NCBI GenBank assembly: GCA_938074445.1
Contig: CALJEK010000031.1
Location: 1-64,000, forward strand
DNA from: Candidatus Kryptoniota bacterium
Lineage (GTDB): Bacteria > Bacteroidota > Ignavibacteria > Kryptoniales > Kryptoniaceae
Direction of reading: 5' to 3'
DNA: 64,000 nucleotides
The notes beneath the pieces are model-generated. The model had not been told where the DNA came from. It saw nothing but the letters and a program-made list of their open reading frames with translations, and ran no database searches. Positions 52,945 to 60,776 of the stretch are shown here, piece after piece (the stretch's first letter is position 1; each line of letters begins with the position of its first letter). Made by a program: the position numbers and the translations under genes.

Positions 52945-53125
52945 AGTGGGTCCTCCTTTAAGGATTTGTTTTAAAGTTTTTAACTAAATAAAGGCAAGCA
53001 AGGTGCTTGTAAAAGCATATGTGGTTTTCCATAAAAACTCAAAGATTTATTTTTCGAGGTTAATTTACCAAAATTAAAGAAAACAGACAAGACCCCGCCG
53101 AATCAAGACTTTGAAAACTCGGAAA

Positions 53126-55813
53126 ATGTTCTTTAAATTTAGATACGTCCAGAAACTTTTAAAAGTGAAAATGAGAGCCAAACTACTTATCGCCTCCTTA
53201 ACATCGCTCATTATTTTAGCACTTGAAACGGCAAAAATTCCATTCCTTGAAAATTTAGATTCATCCTTCAAACAGCTGAAGTTCACACTTCGCGGACAAC
53301 AACAGGTTGACACGTCAATTATCTTTCTTTATATCGATGATATCGCAATTCACACCCTTGGTGGTTACCCTTTGAAGCGAAGCTATTATGCGCTCCTTAT
53401 CGATTTGCTTACCCAATTAAATGTAAAAGCAATCGCATTTGACATACTTCTATTGGATAAAAACCCAGATTATCCAGAGAGAGACAATCTTCTCATTTCA
53501 ACAATAGAAAAATCAAAAAGAGTTTATCTTGGCGGAAGCTTTACAAATTTCGAAAAGTCAACTCACGATACGCTCCAACCTTCGAAAATTCTGCAGAAAT
53601 TTTTAATATCCTCAAATGATAAAAAATTAAATTTCCTTAAAGGCTCAAACTTCCTTGCACCATTCGATGAATTACTTCAAAGTTGCGCAGGGCTGGGTCA
53701 CCTAAACTACATCCAACGCGATTTCCCCGAAGAAATCCCATTGCTTGTTCAATTCGGGAAAAACCAATATCTGCCATCACTTTCGCTCGAACTCGCAAGA
53801 ATTTATTACGAAACCCCGAAAGATTCAGTGAAGATTTTTAAAGATGAAATTCAACTTGGAAACTTTAAAATCCCCACCAAAAACGGGAAAATACAGATAA
53901 ATTACAGCGGTGGAGTAGATGTTTTGAAAATGTATTCCGCTTTAGACTTTATAAAATCTTATGACGCGCTTAGATCTGGCTTTGAGCCGGAAATTAACCT
54001 TGGAGAGTTTAAAAATAAGATTGTGTTCATCGGAATTTTCAGCGATGTCCTTGGACAAACGCTCAAAAGCCCATTCCAAGATAAATTCCCCGCCACAGGG
54101 ATTCACATAATGACATTAAACACCATCATCCAAAGAAAATTTATATTTGAAACCACGCCAGTTTTTAACTTTGCCCTATCTTTAATTTTTTCAATCTTAA
54201 TTCTACAACTCATCTCGATGCGAAACTTTAAAAACATTTTTAGATTCGGGTTCTTCCCTATAACTGCGCTTTCACTATTCTTAGTGCTTGTCCTTTTCTC
54301 CTTCGCACTTGGAATTTCAATCCCAATTTACCCAATTCTTACCGCAATCGCATCAGCATTTCTGGGGATGCTCTATGTTTTTGAAATTGAAAGGAAGAAA
54401 ATGATTGAAATCGAGAACGAGAAAAAGAAAATTGAAGAAATGATAAAAGAAAAGGAATTGGAAATAATCGAACTACAAAGGGAGATTGAAAATTTAAAGG
54501 TTGCTGAAGATAAAGCAACTGCGCTCTCAAACCTTGAGAAAACTTACAATGAGATAAAAGAATTAACTTCTAAATTTGAAGACCTATCTGAATTCACCGA
54601 ACCTGAAAAAACGGAAAAGGCTGAGTTCGAAGGTATAGTTTATTCAAAGGGCGGAAAAATGGAAAAAATAATTTCAGATGTAAAGAAAGTTGCATCATCA
54701 GATGTGCCAATCCTGATAACGGGAGAAAACGGGGTTGGCAAAGAGCTAATCGCAATGGCTATACATAAATTAAGCAAAAGAAAAGATAAAAAATTCATCG
54801 CAATAAATTGTTCAGCAATACCAGAAACACTGCTTGAAAGTGAACTTTTCGGATATGAAAAAGGAGCCTTCACCGGAGCAACACAACAAAAAAGAGGGTT
54901 ACTTGAAACCGCCGATGGTGGGACGATCTTCCTCGATGAAATTGCAGAAACAAGCGAATCTTTTCAGGCGAAAATTTTAAGATTCCTTCAATCTGGAGAA
55001 TTTAATAGAGTCGGTGGAACTGAAACCTTAAAAGTTGACATTAGAATTATCGCTGCAACAAATCGCGATATCGAGAAAGCTATAAGAGAAGGTAAATTTA
55101 GAGAAGACCTTTATTATAGGTTAAATGTCGTCAGAATCCATATTCCACCTTTGCGCGATAGAAAGGAGGATATTCCTTTTCTCGTTGGATATTTTTTGAA
55201 AAAATTTAAAGCTGGTGATATGAAAGTTTCACACGGCGTTATGAACGCATTTTTAAATTACGAATGGCCCGGAAACGTTCGCCAACTTGAAAACGCCATA
55301 AAAAGGGCAATTATATTCGCAAAATCAGAAGATAGAAATCTAATCCAAATTAAAGATTTGCCCGAGGAAATCGCAAGAGTAGCAAGAGGAAAAGAAAATA
55401 TTGAGGAAAAAATTCTAAACTTACTTAAGGCGAAAAAATTCTCGCACAGTGCAATTTCTGAAACCGCCAGTGAACTTGGTTTGAACAGAGGGACTGTAAG
55501 TGAGTATCTCCGGGGAATATGCTTTAAAAATTTATACGAGTGTGAATTTGATATCGACAAAGCATCTGTGAAAATAGCTGGAAATGACGTCGAAGCTGTT
55601 GAAAAGATAAAGAAAAAAACCCTCGAATACATCCAAAACTTCATAGAAACCATCAACCAATGCAAATCTGAAGACGAAATCAAACCACTGATTAAACTAA
55701 AATACAAAAACCTTCCAATGAGATATCATTTTTACCTTGAGGAATTCGCTTTAAAATTTCGCCGAGGCGATCTCCCCTTGGAAAAATTAAATCTAAATGA
55801 TTGGAACCCCTAA
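53126..55813 (+). CDS. Membrane sigma54-dependent activator with CHASE2 sensor domain
   Basis: An N-terminal membrane helix (AKLLIASLTSLIILALETAKI) is followed by an extracytoplasmic CHASE2 domain (about residues 40-340; SIIFLYIDDIAIHTLGGYPLKR, VKAIAFDILL, KNKIVFIGIFSDVLGQ), three more helices (to FLGMLYVFEI), and a coiled coil. The sigma54-interaction AAA+ domain follows: Walker A GENGVGKEL, GAFTGA loop in EKGAFTGATQQKRG, FLDEIAE, RIIAATNRDIEKA. The C-terminus has a Fis-like or other helix-turn-helix (ASELGLNRGTVSEYLRG) and a further 100 residues. No receiver or kinase domain is present. The ATG at 53126 is preferred over the TTG at 53111. A sigma54-type promoter lies 72 bases past the stop. 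Confidence 0.92.
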   Translation: MFFKFRYVQKLLKVKMRAKLLIASLTSLIILALETAKIPFLENLDSSFKQLKFTLRGQQQVDTSIIFLYIDDIAIHTLGGYPLKRSYYALLIDLLTQLNVKAIAFDILLLDKNPDYPERDNLLISTIEKSKRVYLGGSFTNFEKSTHDTLQPSKILQKFLISSNDKKLNFLKGSNFLAPFDELLQSCAGLGHLNYIQRDFPEEIPLLVQFGKNQYLPSLSLELARIYYETPKDSVKIFKDEIQLGNFKIPTKNGKIQINYSGGVDVLKMYSALDFIKSYDALRSGFEPEINLGEFKNKIVFIGIFSDVLGQTLKSPFQDKFPATGIHIMTLNTIIQRKFIFETTPVFNFALSLIFSILILQLISMRNFKNIFRFGFFPITALSLFLVLVLFSFALGISIPIYPILTAIASAFLGMLYVFEIERKKMIEIENEKKKIEEMIKEKELEIIELQREIENLKVAEDKATALSNLEKTYNEIKELTSKFEDLSEFTEPEKTEKAEFEGIVYSKGGKMEKIISDVKKVASSDVPILITGENGVGKELIAMAIHKLSKRKDKKFIAINCSAIPETLLESELFGYEKGAFTGATQQKRGLLETADGGTIFLDEIAETSESFQAKILRFLQSGEFNRVGGTETLKVDIRIIAATNRDIEKAIREGKFREDLYYRLNVVRIHIPPLRDRKEDIPFLVGYFLKKFKAGDMKVSHGVMNAFLNYEWPGNVRQLENAIKRAIIFAKSEDRNLIQIKDLPEEIARVARGKENIEEKILNLLKAKKFSHSAISETASELGLNRGTVSEYLRGICFKNLYECEFDIDKASVKIAGNDVEAVEKIKKKTLEYIQNFIETINQCKSEDEIKPLIKLKYKNLPMRYHFYLEEFALKFRRGDLPLEKLNLNDWNP

Positions 55814-55884
55814 ACCCAGCAATTTTCAAGTAAAACCCAGCATTTTAACAGGAAATTCTACATTGAAAAACAATCAATTTTTTC

Positions 55885-55900
55885 TGGCATTACAGTTGTT
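55885..55900 (+). promoter_or_regulatory. Sigma54 (-24/-12) type promoter
   Basis: TGGCATTACAGTTGTT fits the sigma54 consensus TGGCAC-N5-TTGCT, with GG and GT ten bases apart; the one weak position is T for C in the -12 GC. It is between the sigma54 activator gene and the envelope operon, 51 bases before the lipoprotein start codon, leaving a leader of about 40 bases. Enhancer sites for the activator are not evident. Confidence 0.72.
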
Positions 55901-55950
55901 TTATATATAAGTGTGAACGCAAAAACAAAACAAAATTTAAGGTTGTCGCC

Positions 55951-56750
55951 ATGCTAAAAAAATTATTTCTCCTCGGCTTAATTTCGATTGCAATTATAAT
56001 CAAATTATAATCAATGGATGCACAAAAGGAACAGAGCCATCAGAAACAACCGCAGTCCCAATTGAACTCAAAGCAGTAGGTGAAACATCGGGAAATATAA
56101 CCTTTGCAAAAGCAGCTGGTCAAGTTGACTCAATAAAGATTGATTTCGCTATACTTGTTCTCCGATGGATTCAATTTAAACAAAATATCGACACTGTTAA
56201 AGAAGACTCCCTCTGGGATGACCACGATATGAATAGGATGCGGGAAAAGATGAGGAAAATGGATAATGACCCAACTATAAGATTTAAAGGACCCTTTTTC
56301 GTAACATTGAGAAATAATGAACCGACGCCGATTGCTGTTGATAGCCTTCCACCCGGAAATTACAATGGTATCAAATTTAAAGTTCACGCTATTGTCCCCT
56401 ACGATTTACAGGTAAATCCCGCAGTTCCAGACTCGTTCCTCGGCAAGAGCATTTATGTTAAGGGTCAAATCTATCAAAATGGCGCATGGAAAGAATTCAT
56501 CTTTACAACCGGAAAGGTTAACACCGAGTTCAAGATCAAAGGAGATTTCACAATTACGGAAACGGATAGAAATATCCCGTACGTACTTGTTTTCGATTTG
56601 AATTCCTGGTTCATAGAATTGAATACAGGGAGATTACTTGATCCGAATGACCCTGGAGATCAGGGTAAGATAATAAGCAACATCGTTGCTTCATTGAAAA
56701 ACAAAGCGCGCGGTGGTAAGGATAGAAATAGAGATGGCAAACCAGATTGA
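55951..56750 (+). pseudogene. Lipoprotein gene (DUF4382-like) interrupted by an 11-bp tandem duplication
   Basis: The ATG at 55951 opens MLKKLFLLGLISIAIII and stops at TAA after 19 codons. In the frame two bases off, NGCTKGTEPSETTAVPIELK continues without a start codon and without a stop to 56750. Exactly at the switch the bases AATTATAATCA occur twice in tandem (55992-56002 and 56003-56013). Removing one copy restores a single frame with signal and lipobox IAIIINGC. The body (FKGPFFVTLRNNEPTPIAVDSL, PGNYNGIKFKV) resembles DUF4382 outer-membrane lipoproteins. The ORF track only shows 56229-56750 because no start exists earlier. It is either a real (possibly switchable) mutation or an assembly error. 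Confidence 0.85.
55992..56013. repeat. Exact 11-bp tandem duplication causing a frameshift
   Basis: AATTATAATCA appears twice back to back inside the signal-peptide coding region. Eleven is not a multiple of three, so copy number sets the reading frame: one copy is in frame, two copies are out. Confidence 0.9.
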
Positions 56751-56854: not shown

Positions 56855-57739
56855 ATGAGAAAGGTCTTTTACATAATAATCGCCTTAGCATTGATAGGAT
56901 GCGGTAAAAACTCGCTGATAATAACGCCAGAAGAAGATGAAAAACTTAATGTCGAGGTTATTTACCTTGACGAAACTGAGCCAGTTGTTGAGTTTCTTAA
57001 TTCAGCACAAACTGGTCTTTTAACATCCGAGATGATGAATTCTATGGGTTTAATCGTGTTAAGCTACTCTCAGTTTGTTTCCGAATTAGGCAATAAATAT
57101 GACACAACCTTAGCTTATGCACTTTTTCGCGATGCCCAATCCCCGCCAATAATTATGGGACGCTGGCGTGAAAGGAAAGGGCTTGACATTGGGGATCTTT
57201 ACCTCGAAAATATAAAACTTGAAAAATCACAGAGAAAAATTAAAATTCCATCGCAACACCCAAGAGTTGACCCAAGCTACGGTGTGGAGTATAAGTTTAA
57301 AGCGACAAACTTTGAGTTCAAACACTCCGCAAAACATAAATTTAAAATTATCACTAAATCAGGTAGCGAATTTTTCTTTGAATTAGATACACCTGACAAA
57401 AAAGAGATTGACGACTTACCGAAATACGACGGTGAAAACTTAAAATTTAAATTTAAATTAAAAACTGACACCTTGACCATAGTTATAAACGTTCCCTTAC
57501 CAGGTGAAGATGAGTTTACTATGAAGCCAGTCATAATGTTAAAATTTAAAAACTTGAATAGCCCCAAAGTTCAGATCGGTTCCGAAATTTTAAGGCTTAT
57601 ACCGGATGAATACAAGCAAAATTATCTTATATTCAGCATAGTTCAAAAATATCAAAAAAGTGTAAATGTTCCTGGCTATTCAGAAAATGCCGTCGCTTTC
57701 GTGTCATCAACACTTTATTTTAAAGTGAAGTTAAGATGA
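56855..57739 (+). CDS. Lipoprotein of unknown function
   Basis: MRKVFYIIIALALIGCGKNS is a lipoprotein signal with Cys16. The 294-aa body is beta-rich (VEYKFKATNFEFKHSAKHKFKIITKSG, KFKFKLKTDTLTIVINVPLPGED) and may hold two Ig-like or jelly-roll-like sandwiches; I recognise no family. It precedes the barrel-transglutaminase gene, overlapping it by four bases (ATGA), so the two are coupled. It may be an outer-membrane partner of that protein. Confidence 0.78.
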   Translation: MRKVFYIIIALALIGCGKNSLIITPEEDEKLNVEVIYLDETEPVVEFLNSAQTGLLTSEMMNSMGLIVLSYSQFVSELGNKYDTTLAYALFRDAQSPPIIMGRWRERKGLDIGDLYLENIKLEKSQRKIKIPSQHPRVDPSYGVEYKFKATNFEFKHSAKHKFKIITKSGSEFFFELDTPDKKEIDDLPKYDGENLKFKFKLKTDTLTIVINVPLPGEDEFTMKPVIMLKFKNLNSPKVQIGSEILRLIPDEYKQNYLIFSIVQKYQKSVNVPGYSENAVAFVSSTLYFKVKLR

Positions 57740-59718
57740 AACTGCGCCTTTTCGTTTTATTTTTTACAGCGCTCAATCTGGCCGTGACGCAAAATTTAAC
57801 ATCGCCACAGGCAACTGCTGTTGCTAGTTTTTCAACATTTGCAAATTCTGCTTTGTCATCGGCAGTGAATCCAGCAGGTTTGATGAGAATTTATGACTGG
57901 AATATAGGGCTAACGGGTTACTACAAAATTTATTCTGGCACTAAAATGCACTCAATCGGAATAGCAAAAAGACTTACGGAAACGCAAAGCCTCGGGTTTA
58001 TTTACTCCCCAGGTTCGAGCATTGAATTTGTTTTTCCATCGATCTTGTCAATAAATATAGGGAATTCCATACTAAACGCCGAGTTTCAGCGAAAAATAAC
58101 TTATTCCGCAAATTATACCCTTGCATATGCCTTACGACTTTCGAACAAAATCTCACTTGGCTCATTAATCCAATACATTTCTCAAAATCTCATTGAAACT
58201 GGCTATAAAATTCAACCAACGGATTCGCTTCCGCAAGTAAGTATAGAAACAAAACAATACAGTTCTTCCCACTTGAGTTCTAAAATCTCATTGCTTTATG
58301 AAGTCACTTCAAAAGTATCATTTGCTTTACTGCTTGAAAACTTATCACTTCGACTTAAAAAGTTCCCAGAACAATTTAGAAACTTCGAATTCGAAAATAA
58401 TTTTAAAGTTAAAACCGCAGTAGGGCTGGATTTTAGAAATTTAAAATCGGGCATTGAAATCTCATCTATTGGTGAATCGCATGCCGGAATTGAAGCTCAA
58501 CCGATTAAAAATTTATTTTTTAGAGGGGGGTTGTTTTCTGAGAAGGGGAAACTTAGCGGTTTCTCAACTGGGCTCGGATTTAGAAGTGGGCTCTTTCAAT
58601 TTGACTTGGCTTATTTTAGAAACACATCAGATATTTGGAGGGATGGGAAGTTAACGCAAGATGAATTTTTTAAAAAACTTGTAAAAAATGCCGAGTTCGA
58701 AAAATTTGCTAAAGATGAAATCACGTTTTCAATTTCAGTTGATATGAGCAAATGGCATGAAAAAAGTTTACGAATAAAGAACCTCGCGATTAAAGATGAG
58801 GTCTTTCCGCATATGCTGAGTAACTTTGAAAAAAGAAATATAGGCTCAGTTGAGATTGAAAATATATCTAACAAAGTTTTAAATGCAAAGATTGATTTCA
58901 AGCTTTCCTACCCTGTTGAAATTGAAGCTGAGCCGAACGAATTTGAAATAAAACCAAACGAGACAAAAACGATACCAATTTCAATATCACTTGGGACAAT
59001 TAATCCGGAAAACAACGAGCCAATTAAAATTAATGCTTGGCTAAATGTTAAATCGTCAAGCAACATTTCAGATGAAGTTAAAAAGTTTAAAATTCTTTTG
59101 CGCGGTCGAAACGATTGGAATGGAAATGTCGAAGAGCTGAAATTTTTCTTGAGATTTGACTCTCCAGAAATCTCTTCATTTGCCAGGAAAATAATTTGGG
59201 AACGCAAAGACACGCTCGAAAAGATAGATCCAATGTTAAGGAAATTTTATCAGGCAAAATTTATATTCGATGAACTCTCTAAGCACATAATCTATGTAAG
59301 CGATCCAAGCTTAAGCATAGATAAAGTTCAATTTCCGGAGGAAACACTGAAGCTTCGCACAGGTGATTGTGATGACCTTGCAATTTTATATGCGTCTCTA
59401 CTTGGATCAATTGGGATTAAAGTGGCTTTTGTCGATGTCAAAGATTTAAGAGAAATAAACGAATCACACGTCTATATCATCTTCGACTCCGAGATAGACA
59501 AAAAATTTGTTCAGGCTATAACAAGTAACGAGAAAAAATACATTATTATAAAAAACGAAAATGGAACTGAAACCGCATGGATCCCTATTGAGACAACACT
59601 TGTTCACGAGGGATTTGATAAGGCTTGGGCAACGGGAGCTGAGCAGTTTTTCAATGACTTTGAACTCAATCTTGGACACACAAAGGGAAAAGCTAAAATC
59701 GTTTTCATTGAAAAATAA
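57736..59718 (+). CDS. Outer-membrane barrel fused to Ig-like and transglutaminase-like domains
   Basis: A signal peptide (MKLRLFVLFFTALNLAVTQ) leads a PorV/UPF0164-like barrel (about residues 20-310; ALSSAVNPAGLMRIYDWNIGL), an Ig-like region (about 370-460; NFEKRNIGSVEIENISNK, NEFEIKPNETKTIPISISL) and a transglutaminase/cysteine-protease-like domain (about 510-640). The catalytic Cys is in RTGDCDDLAILYASLLGSIG (C545) and the His in ESHVYIIFDS (H578); the third residue would be in WIPIETTLV, with Glu where Asp is usual. The barrel may hold the enzyme at the outer membrane with the catalytic domain in the periplasm or outside. ATGA overlap with the lipoprotein gene. Confidence 0.85.
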   Translation: MKLRLFVLFFTALNLAVTQNLTSPQATAVASFSTFANSALSSAVNPAGLMRIYDWNIGLTGYYKIYSGTKMHSIGIAKRLTETQSLGFIYSPGSSIEFVFPSILSINIGNSILNAEFQRKITYSANYTLAYALRLSNKISLGSLIQYISQNLIETGYKIQPTDSLPQVSIETKQYSSSHLSSKISLLYEVTSKVSFALLLENLSLRLKKFPEQFRNFEFENNFKVKTAVGLDFRNLKSGIEISSIGESHAGIEAQPIKNLFFRGGLFSEKGKLSGFSTGLGFRSGLFQFDLAYFRNTSDIWRDGKLTQDEFFKKLVKNAEFEKFAKDEITFSISVDMSKWHEKSLRIKNLAIKDEVFPHMLSNFEKRNIGSVEIENISNKVLNAKIDFKLSYPVEIEAEPNEFEIKPNETKTIPISISLGTINPENNEPIKINAWLNVKSSSNISDEVKKFKILLRGRNDWNGNVEELKFFLRFDSPEISSFARKIIWERKDTLEKIDPMLRKFYQAKFIFDELSKHIIYVSDPSLSIDKVQFPEETLKLRTGDCDDLAILYASLLGSIGIKVAFVDVKDLREINESHVYIIFDSEIDKKFVQAITSNEKKYIIIKNENGTETAWIPIETTLVHEGFDKAWATGAEQFFNDFELNLGHTKGKAKIVFIEK

Positions 59719-59733
59719 AATTAGGTGTTTAAA

Positions 59734-60453
59734 ATGATACGTAAAACTTTAAGCCCGTTGATTTTAATACTTCTGTTTCTTTCGTCTGCACTATCAAAAG
59801 AAAATTCTGTTTACAAAGTAAAAAAATTAAACGGAACTGCGCAAGTAAGACATGGAACCAGCGAAGTATGGAAAACACTTTTAACTGGGGATACACTTCG
59901 ACCGGATGATACAATTTTTTTGGACAAGAACGCGTATATTGAAATAGTGGGAAATGAGGCATTCTTTAAATCAAACGGTAGCATAGTTGTTAACATCTCC
60001 GATTTAAGGCGATTAACAAAGGAAGAACTTTTACTACAACTTGCTTTTGAAGAAATGAAATCTTCCCCAGAGGTGAAGCGAAGCAAGCCGAGCACAAGGT
60101 CAACGGGAATTTATGGGGCTGATGTTGAAAAGGAGAAAACTAAGTTAAAATCTGGCTGGGATTTAGCCAAGTTTTGGGCTAATGGTGTGAGGGCTCTTTT
60201 TGAGAATGGCTTCTATGAAACAGCAGCGATAAGGGCTAAAAATTTAATGTCAAGATTTGACGAGTTAAAAGACGACATTGAGTTGAAAATGATAATCGCT
60301 ACATCACTTGAAAAACTTGAACTTTACGGAGAGGCAATCTCAGAGTTTAACAAAATAATTTTAACATCAAAAGACGCGAATTTAAATTTTAAAATTGAAA
60401 GAAAAATTCAAGAACTTAAGTCAAAACTTGCGTCTTTAAGGGAAAAACGATAA
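59734..60453 (+). CDS. FecR-like domain and helical-repeat protein
   Basis: Signal peptide (MIRKTLSPLILILLFLSSALS), then a FecR-like beta domain (VKKLNGTAQVRHGTSEVWKTLLTGDTLRPDDTIFL, then ALYVELVG-like FLDKNAYIEIVGNEAFF), and a C-terminal helical region (AANGVRALFENGFYETAAIRAKNL, EAISEFNKIILTSKD) that looks like one or two TPR-type units. I use the ATG at 59734 in preference to the GTG at 59725. It follows the transglutaminase gene by 15 bases and probably belongs to that operon; no TonB or ECF partner is here, so it is not a classical FecR regulator. Confidence 0.8.
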   Translation: MIRKTLSPLILILLFLSSALSKENSVYKVKKLNGTAQVRHGTSEVWKTLLTGDTLRPDDTIFLDKNAYIEIVGNEAFFKSNGSIVVNISDLRRLTKEELLLQLAFEEMKSSPEVKRSKPSTRSTGIYGADVEKEKTKLKSGWDLAKFWANGVRALFENGFYETAAIRAKNLMSRFDELKDDIELKMIIATSLEKLELYGEAISEFNKIILTSKDANLNFKIERKIQELKSKLASLREKR

Positions 60454-60476: not shown

Positions 60477-60776
60477 ATGAAATTAACGCGCTGGGATAAA
60501 CCACACAAACCAAATGTTGAGGAACTTAAGAGCATACTTCGTTCAGAAGGGATGACGCCTTACATTTGGATGGATGAACCGGGAACTTATTATGGTAATC
60601 ACTCTCACGCTTTTGATGAGGTTCGCTGGATTGTGAGCGGTAAGATGAGATATGGCGTCAAAGATGAGGAATTTGTTCTCGGTCCTGGAGATAGACTTGA
60701 TCTTCCGGCGGGGACAATTCATTGGGCGAAAGTTGAGGGAGACGAACCGGTTTTTTACTTATGCGCTTCGAAATGA
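60477..60776 (+). CDS. Cupin domain protein
   Basis: A 99-aa single-domain cupin. The two cupin motifs are GNHSHAFDEVRWIVSGKMRYGV and GDRLDLPAGTIHWAKVEG, with His and Glu residues that normally bind a divalent metal. Small single cupins of this form can be metal-dependent enzymes or sugar-binding proteins; the substrate is unknown. It follows the FecR-like gene by 23 bases and ends exactly at the csrA stop on the opposite strand. Confidence 0.85.
   Translation: MKLTRWDKPHKPNVEELKSILRSEGMTPYIWMDEPGTYYGNHSHAFDEVRWIVSGKMRYGVKDEEFVLGPGDRLDLPAGTIHWAKVEGDEPVFYLCASK

What the first reader, a model, noticed from the sequence alone, without database searches (positions are those of the whole stretch)
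57736..59718. Outer-membrane barrel fused to an Ig-like domain and a transglutaminase-like protease
A PorV-like barrel, an Ig-like spacer and a Cys-His transglutaminase domain in one protein is not an arrangement I know as named. The third catalytic position seems to be Glu (WIPIETT) instead of Asp. It could be an outer-membrane-tethered protease or cross-linker.
Basis: partly seen in the sequence, partly recalled or inferred. Interest (0 to 1): 0.6.

Follow-up and report, generated by a model that had tools for sequence, protein, structure and literature searches.

The report
Outer-membrane-anchored transglutaminase-fold enzyme in sensory operon
A hot-spring bacterium and its relatives carry a protein in which an outer-membrane barrel is joined to an enzyme of the transglutaminase/cysteine-protease fold, nearly always next to genes of a membrane sensor system, which points to an undescribed way of passing information from the outer to the inner membrane.

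Summary
Window 57736-59718 encodes one 660-aa protein: signal peptide, 14-strand PorV/FadL-type barrel, Ig-like domain and transglutaminase-like (TG) domain with Cys545, His578 and Glu619 (conserved in 92, 92 and 91 of 92 relatives). It is not a one-off. Full-length orthologs occur across Ignavibacteria. In KSB1/Calditrichia relatives the PorV barrel is replaced by an OMP_b-brl-type barrel, while the Ig-TG part and its partner gene stay. The gene sits in an operon: CHASE2-sigma54 activator, two lipoproteins, barrel-Ig-TG, then a secreted FecR-like/TPR protein, which follows the TG gene in 77 of 80 loci. CHASE2 genes lie within 10 kb of 30 of 38 Ig-TG genes (0.6 expected). A sigma54 promoter lies between activator and operon in 23 of 34 loci (0.18 expected). 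The FecR-like protein's N-terminal domain is modelled like the retention domain of RTX adhesins, the domain type processed by LapG, a TG-fold protease. Best reading: a sigma54-controlled, outer-membrane-tethered cysteine hydrolase facing the periplasm, working with a FecR-like/CHASE2 sensor relay. Catalysis, substrate and signalling direction are untested. It is not LapG (no C93 match; Glu instead of Asp). I found no earlier description.

The parts
57736..59718 (+). Barrel-Ig-TG protein, 660 aa (signal peptide about 1-18; PorV/FadL-type barrel about 30-300; Ig-like 328-455; TG domain about 465-660; C545, H578, E619)
53111..55813 (+). CHASE2-sigma54 enhancer-binding protein (CHASE2 33-364, AAA+ with GAFTGA 514-677, AAA lid, C-terminal HTH-like region); presumed activator of the operon
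   Evidence: Pfam CHASE2 E 4e-31, Sigma54_activat E 1e-71; GAFTGA and P-loop present
55885..55900 (+). Sigma54 -24/-12 promoter candidate TGGCATTACAGTTGTT ahead of the lipoprotein/TG operon
   Evidence: position conserved in six Kryptonium-group genomes; 23 of 34 loci have TGGCA[CT]N5TTG there, 0.18 expected. Alone in the window it is not above chance.
55812..55842 (+). Two AAACCCAGCA direct repeats (55812-55821, 55833-55842), candidate activator-binding sites
   Evidence: conserved in the Kryptonium-group alignment
56229..56750 (+). Lipoprotein 1 (weak DUF4382 match); the window copy is cut from its signal peptide by an 11-bp tandem duplication near 55990
56855..57739 (+). Lipoprotein 2 (lipobox ALIGC), stop overlaps the TG start
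   Evidence: homolog directly upstream in 52 of 80 loci
59725..60453 (+). Secreted FecR-like / retention-module-like beta domain (30-90), helix 99-113, flexible linker with motif TGIYG (127-131), TPR-like helices (144-241)
   Evidence: AF2 pLDDT 87.7; Foldseek 5ix9; NF033682 weak matches in 15 of 20 orthologs; follows the TG gene in 77 of 80 loci

Best explanation
The protein is an outer-membrane-anchored enzyme of the transglutaminase-like cysteine protease superfamily. The barrel is the anchor (and possibly a pore), the Ig-like domain is a spacer, and the TG domain sits in the periplasm with a Cys-His-Glu active site. It is produced from a sigma54 promoter switched on by the CHASE2-sigma54 activator encoded directly upstream, and it works with the secreted FecR-like/TPR protein encoded directly downstream. 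The likely job is envelope sensing: the TG domain acts on a periplasmic protein, most probably the FecR-like partner, and the state of that partner is read by the inner-membrane CHASE2 domain, which adjusts transcription of the operon. Shown by computation: architecture, conservation of the catalytic residues, operon linkage, promoter, exchange of the barrel type. Inferred: periplasmic side, catalysis, substrate, and direction of signalling.
For: Barrel fold. C/H/E conserved in 92/92/91 of 92, with acidic residues on both sides of the Cys (D544, D546) in all 92. The best solved-structure sequence match of the TG region is 4u65, a LapG-type protease (annotated 'putative cystine protease'), though only at E 0.033. 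FecR-like gene directly downstream in 77 of 80 loci, median gap 16 bp; in a whole-genome survey, all 23 barrel-type TG genes have it. CHASE2 within 10 kb of 30 of 38 Ig-TG genes, 0.6 expected; two other Ig-TG architectures are linked to CHASE2-adenylate cyclase genes. Sigma54 promoter in 23 of 34 loci against 0.18 expected, and in 13 of 38 loci without the linked activator, 0.14 expected; the genome encodes sigma54. FecR-like N-terminal domain modelled like the RTX-adhesin anchoring domain 5ix9: TM 0.73 on the target, 1.9 A over 66 columns. FecR-like genes without a TG gene also sit beside CHASE2 (21 of 22), which ties the FecR-like domain to CHASE2. KSB1/Calditrichia relatives swap the PorV barrel for an OMP_b-brl barrel but keep Ig-TG plus the FecR-like gene, as expected if the barrel is mainly an anchor.
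Against: No activity, substrate or contact is demonstrated. The conserved linker motif in the FecR-like protein, first taken as a cleavage site, has a look-alike ([VI][YFLM]GAVRG) in FecR-like proteins that have no TG gene, so it does not point to the TG domain. Ignavibacteriaceae loci have the TG and FecR-like genes without an adjacent same-strand CHASE2 activator. The 5ix9 match has a modest E-value (3.9e-3), and FecR and LapA retention domains may simply share a fold. The chance estimates treat related genomes as independent.
Confidence: 0.55

Rival explanations
1. Envelope or peptidoglycan remodelling enzyme: the TG domain cuts cell-wall peptides or a wall-bound protein to adjust contact between outer membrane and wall, and the FecR-like/TPR protein is a CpoB/YbgF-like scaffold.
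For: TPR part of 4 of 20 partners matches tol-pal YbgF (best E 2.3e-6); a published FecR-CHASE2 operon in Burkholderiales has FecR fused to the wall-binding LysM domain (PMC5192318).
Against: No wall-binding domain in the operon's proteins in the Pfam and NCBIfam scans; the superfamily's wall-cutting members were not tested for closer similarity.
Confidence: 0.2
2. Part of type IX secretion: a single-chain analogue of the PorU-PorV attachment pair, with the barrel as shuttle and the TG domain as an acyl-transferring processing enzyme.
For: PorV-type barrel; the genome has the T9SS channel SprA.
Against: Barrel scores far below the T9SS PorV and PorQ cut-offs (17.9 of 250 and 14.5 of 220 bits); KSB1 relatives use a different barrel; the even strand number puts the TG domain in the periplasm, while attachment happens at the surface; the operon is tied to CHASE2/sigma54, not T9SS genes.
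Confidence: 0.07
3. The TG domain is a binding or structural module without catalysis.
For: Glu replaces Asp as third residue; many TG-fold domains have lost activity (general knowledge).
Against: Cys, His and Glu are conserved in 92, 92 and 91 of 92 divergent relatives, more strictly than most of the domain.
Confidence: 0.12
4. Protein cross-linking transglutaminase acting on outer-membrane proteins.
For: Fold superfamily name only.
Against: The GDCDD acidic cluster resembles LapG-type proteases (GDCED in 4u65) rather than true transglutaminases; no cross-linking substrate candidate found.
Confidence: 0.06

Closest known systems
LapG/DvhG (BTLCP, peptidase C93) with LapA retention module and LapD
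   Same: Periplasmic TG-fold cysteine protease; acidic residues flank the catalytic Cys (calcium site in DvhG D316/C317/E318, PMC13090378); partner protein with a retention-module-like domain; inner-membrane receptor with a periplasmic sensing domain.
   Different: No C93 match (none in 148 genomes of the phylum); Glu instead of Asp; enzyme anchored to an outer-membrane barrel through an Ig-like domain; partner is a small TPR protein, not an adhesin; receptor is CHASE2-sigma54, not c-di-GMP-binding.
PorV/PorQ and FadL barrels
   Same: 14-strand barrel, NPA motif, best Foldseek matches.
   Different: Below PorV family cut-offs; extra Ig-TG domains. About 19 other PorV-family matches in the same genome lie in shorter frames (226-474 aa) and none coincides with a TG match.
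FecR-CHASE2 operons (Burkholderia BiofilmReg operon, PMC5192318)
   Same: FecR-like secreted protein encoded beside a CHASE2 receptor.
   Different: There the CHASE2 receptor is a histidine kinase and no TG enzyme is described in the passages read; here the output is a sigma54 activator and the operon holds the barrel-TG protein.
Transglut_core family PF01841
   Same: Domain passes the curated cut-off.
   Different: Third residue Glu; fused to outer-membrane barrels.

Membership tests
Transglut_core (PF01841) | Score above curated cut-off | tested here: met
   24.3 bits against 23; 13 of 13 orthologs match
Transglut_core (PF01841) | Cys-His-Asp triad | tested here: not met
   Cys and His present, third residue Glu in 91 of 92
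Transglut_core (PF01841) | Profile similarity to other members | tested here: met
   hhalign 97% probability over 63 columns around the Cys; His and Glu lie outside the aligned part
LapG / peptidase C93 | PF06035 match | tested here: not met
   no match at E 1 in the window protein or at E 0.1 in 13 orthologs; no match in the own genome
LapG / peptidase C93 | Acidic calcium-ligand positions beside the Cys | tested here: met
   D544 and D546 in 92 of 92; calcium binding itself not testable
LapG / peptidase C93 | Cleavage at [T/A/P]AAG in an adhesin | not testable with these tools
   no TAAG-like site seen in the FecR-like partner; needs an enzyme assay
LapA retention module (NF033682) | Score above curated cut-off (partner protein) | tested here: not met
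   15.3 of 50 bits for the window copy; 15 of 20 orthologs match, at E up to 0.1
LapA retention module (NF033682) | Retention-domain fold | tested here: met
   Foldseek 5ix9, TM 0.73 on target, 1.9 A, E 3.9e-3
FecR (PF04773) | Pfam match in the partner protein | tested here: inconclusive
   2 of 20 orthologs, best E 0.07
PorV/PorQ family (NF033709) | Score above curated cut-off | tested here: not met
   39.8 of 90 bits
FadL/PorV fold | 14-strand barrel with NPA motif | tested here: met
Sigma54 enhancer-binding protein (upstream gene) | Sigma54 AAA+ domain with GAFTGA | tested here: met

The most novel reading that the evidence does not exclude
An undescribed outer-to-inner-membrane relay: an outer-membrane-anchored TG-fold protease processes a retention-module/FecR-like relay protein, which controls a CHASE2 receptor and through it sigma54 transcription, a wiring analogous to LapG-LapA-LapD but with transcriptional output.
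Probability: 0.3. Interest if true: 0.8.

Novelty: new variant of a known kind. Interest (0 to 1): 0.6.

Why it matters
CHASE2 receptors are widespread, but what they sense is unknown (stated in PMC5192318). Tight gene linkage of CHASE2 with a FecR-like protein and an outer-membrane-anchored TG enzyme gives a concrete, testable candidate for the periplasmic input. The exchange of one barrel type for another on the same Ig-TG module shows how outer-membrane anchoring of a periplasmic enzyme can be re-invented.

Tried and rejected
1) Linker motif T-h-h-[YH]-G in the FecR-like protein as TG cleavage site: conserved (Gly in 72 of 75) and absent as written from 19 TG-less FecR-like proteins, but most of those have a similar [VI][YFLM]GAVRG after a similar helix, so I dropped it as evidence for cleavage. 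2) True LapG/Lap system: rejected (no C93; no retention-module match in the genome at E 0.001). 3) Sigma54 promoter by a simple scan of the window: not above chance; only comparison across loci made it convincing. 4) Literature on PorV plus TG-like, on CHASE2 plus sigma-54 plus outer membrane, and on retention module plus FecR: no paper; CHASE2 plus transglutaminase gave one paper, which was not opened; FadL plus transglutaminase plus fusion returned unrelated papers. 5) Weak match to anti-phage ProA (E 0.002, 15 of 1500 bits): only the shared TG region, not followed. 6) Phage families: no match. 7) Laying the whole genome in the Python box was not available.

Full report
What is there. Window 57736-59718 is one intact 660-aa gene. 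The window lies in a genome of the Candidatus Kryptonium group: the nearest named relative, Ca. Kryptonium thompsonii, is 84% identical over the whole protein. The protein has a signal peptide, a barrel, an Ig-like region and a TG domain. The barrel is of PorV/FadL type by profile, by the AlphaFold2 model with 14 strands, by Foldseek (PorV 8gl6_F, E 5.8e-9; FadL and TbuX) and by an NPA-type motif. The TG domain passes Pfam's cut-off. Cys545, His578 and Glu619 are conserved in 92, 92 and 91 of 92 relatives, and the acidic GDCDD cluster in all. Pairing an even-stranded barrel with a C-terminal domain puts the TG domain in the periplasm (inference from barrel topology).

How widespread it is. In 60 relatives plus the own genome, 12 other genomes have full-length orthologs, from the same genus to other families of the class. 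A scan of 84,980 species genomes found 540 stretches encoding relatives of the query; the best 80 were kept. Most of these 80 are Ignavibacteria with the PorV-type barrel. In KSB1 and Calditrichia the N-terminal part is instead an OMP_b-brl-type barrel, often with a second copy of that barrel encoded just upstream. Two further Ig-TG architectures exist: one with an LpoB/TolB-like N-terminus and C-terminal TPRs, present as a paralog in this genome, and one with NHL and TPR repeats.

Surroundings. The gene order is CHASE2-sigma54 activator, lipoprotein 1, lipoprotein 2, barrel-Ig-TG, FecR-like/TPR protein. The FecR-like gene follows the TG gene in 77 of 80 loci, median gap 16 bp. In 119 genomes of the class, 30 of 38 Ig-TG genes have a CHASE2 gene within 10 kb, against 0.6 expected. 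The paralogous Ig-TG genes are linked to CHASE2-adenylate cyclases instead, so the link is to CHASE2 and not to one output. FecR-like genes without TG also lie next to CHASE2 in 21 of 22 cases. This matches the published FecR-CHASE2 operons of Burkholderiales (PMC5192318).

Regulation. A -24/-12 sigma54 promoter lies between the activator gene and the rest of the operon in all six Kryptonium-group genomes aligned and in 23 of 34 loci overall, against 0.18 expected. In the window it is at 55885-55900, preceded by two AAACCCAGCA repeats. The genome encodes sigma54, and the activator has the GAFTGA motif. The upstream activator therefore very probably controls this operon.

The partner protein. 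The FecR-like protein is modelled with high confidence as a beta domain, a helix, a flexible linker and TPR-like helices. The best beta-domain match among solved structures is 5ix9, annotated as a cell surface anchoring domain. PMC13090378 describes the Marinomonas primoryensis anchoring domain as the type found in LapG and DvhG substrates; that 5ix9 is this Marinomonas domain is my own knowledge. NCBIfam's LapA retention module is the most frequent match among 20 orthologs, but it is below its cut-off in the window copy and weak overall (best E 8.8e-5). LapG proteases share the TG fold and the acidic residues beside the Cys. The system thus resembles a Lap-like arrangement in its parts, but it is not a Lap system: C93 is absent from 148 genomes of the phylum, the third residue is Glu, and the receptor is CHASE2.

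Mechanism. I commit to a sigma54-controlled, outer-membrane-tethered cysteine hydrolase that works with the FecR-like/CHASE2 relay in the periplasm. The step 'TG acts on the FecR-like protein' rests on gene linkage and the Lap analogy alone. The linker motif that at first seemed a cleavage site also occurs, in a variant form, where there is no TG gene, so it may instead be a CHASE2 contact.

Limits. Genomes are related and not independent events. Neighbour calls rest on in-script ORFs and profiles seeded from these loci. No model coordinates were available to measure the active site. The literature search covered open-licence papers only.

Noticed in passing
window 55950-56000: The lipoprotein gene before the TG operon carries an 11-bp tandem duplication (AATTATAATCA twice) in its signal peptide, which breaks the frame; the five aligned relatives have one copy. 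It could be slippage, phase variation or an assembly error.
   Followed up: partly
G000:C22:45370-48306 (L037): A paralogous Ig-TG protein with an LpoB/TolB-like N-terminus and TPRs is encoded next to a CHASE2-adenylate cyclase.
   Followed up: partly
own genome: About 19 other PorV-family barrel matches plus SprA: a large expansion of PorV-like proteins in a small genome.
   Followed up: no
L164-L182: Most FecR-like proteins beside CHASE2 without a TG gene share a helix followed by a [VI][YFLM]GAVRG-like motif in a linker, a possible CHASE2-contact element.
   Followed up: partly
L095-L122 (KSB1, Calditrichia): A stand-alone barrel gene similar to the barrel of the TG protein often lies directly upstream, suggesting the fusion arose after tandem duplication.
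   Followed up: no
window 60477-60776: Conserved 99-aa ORF directly after the FecR-like gene in three same-genus genomes (81-91% identity), function unknown.
   Followed up: no
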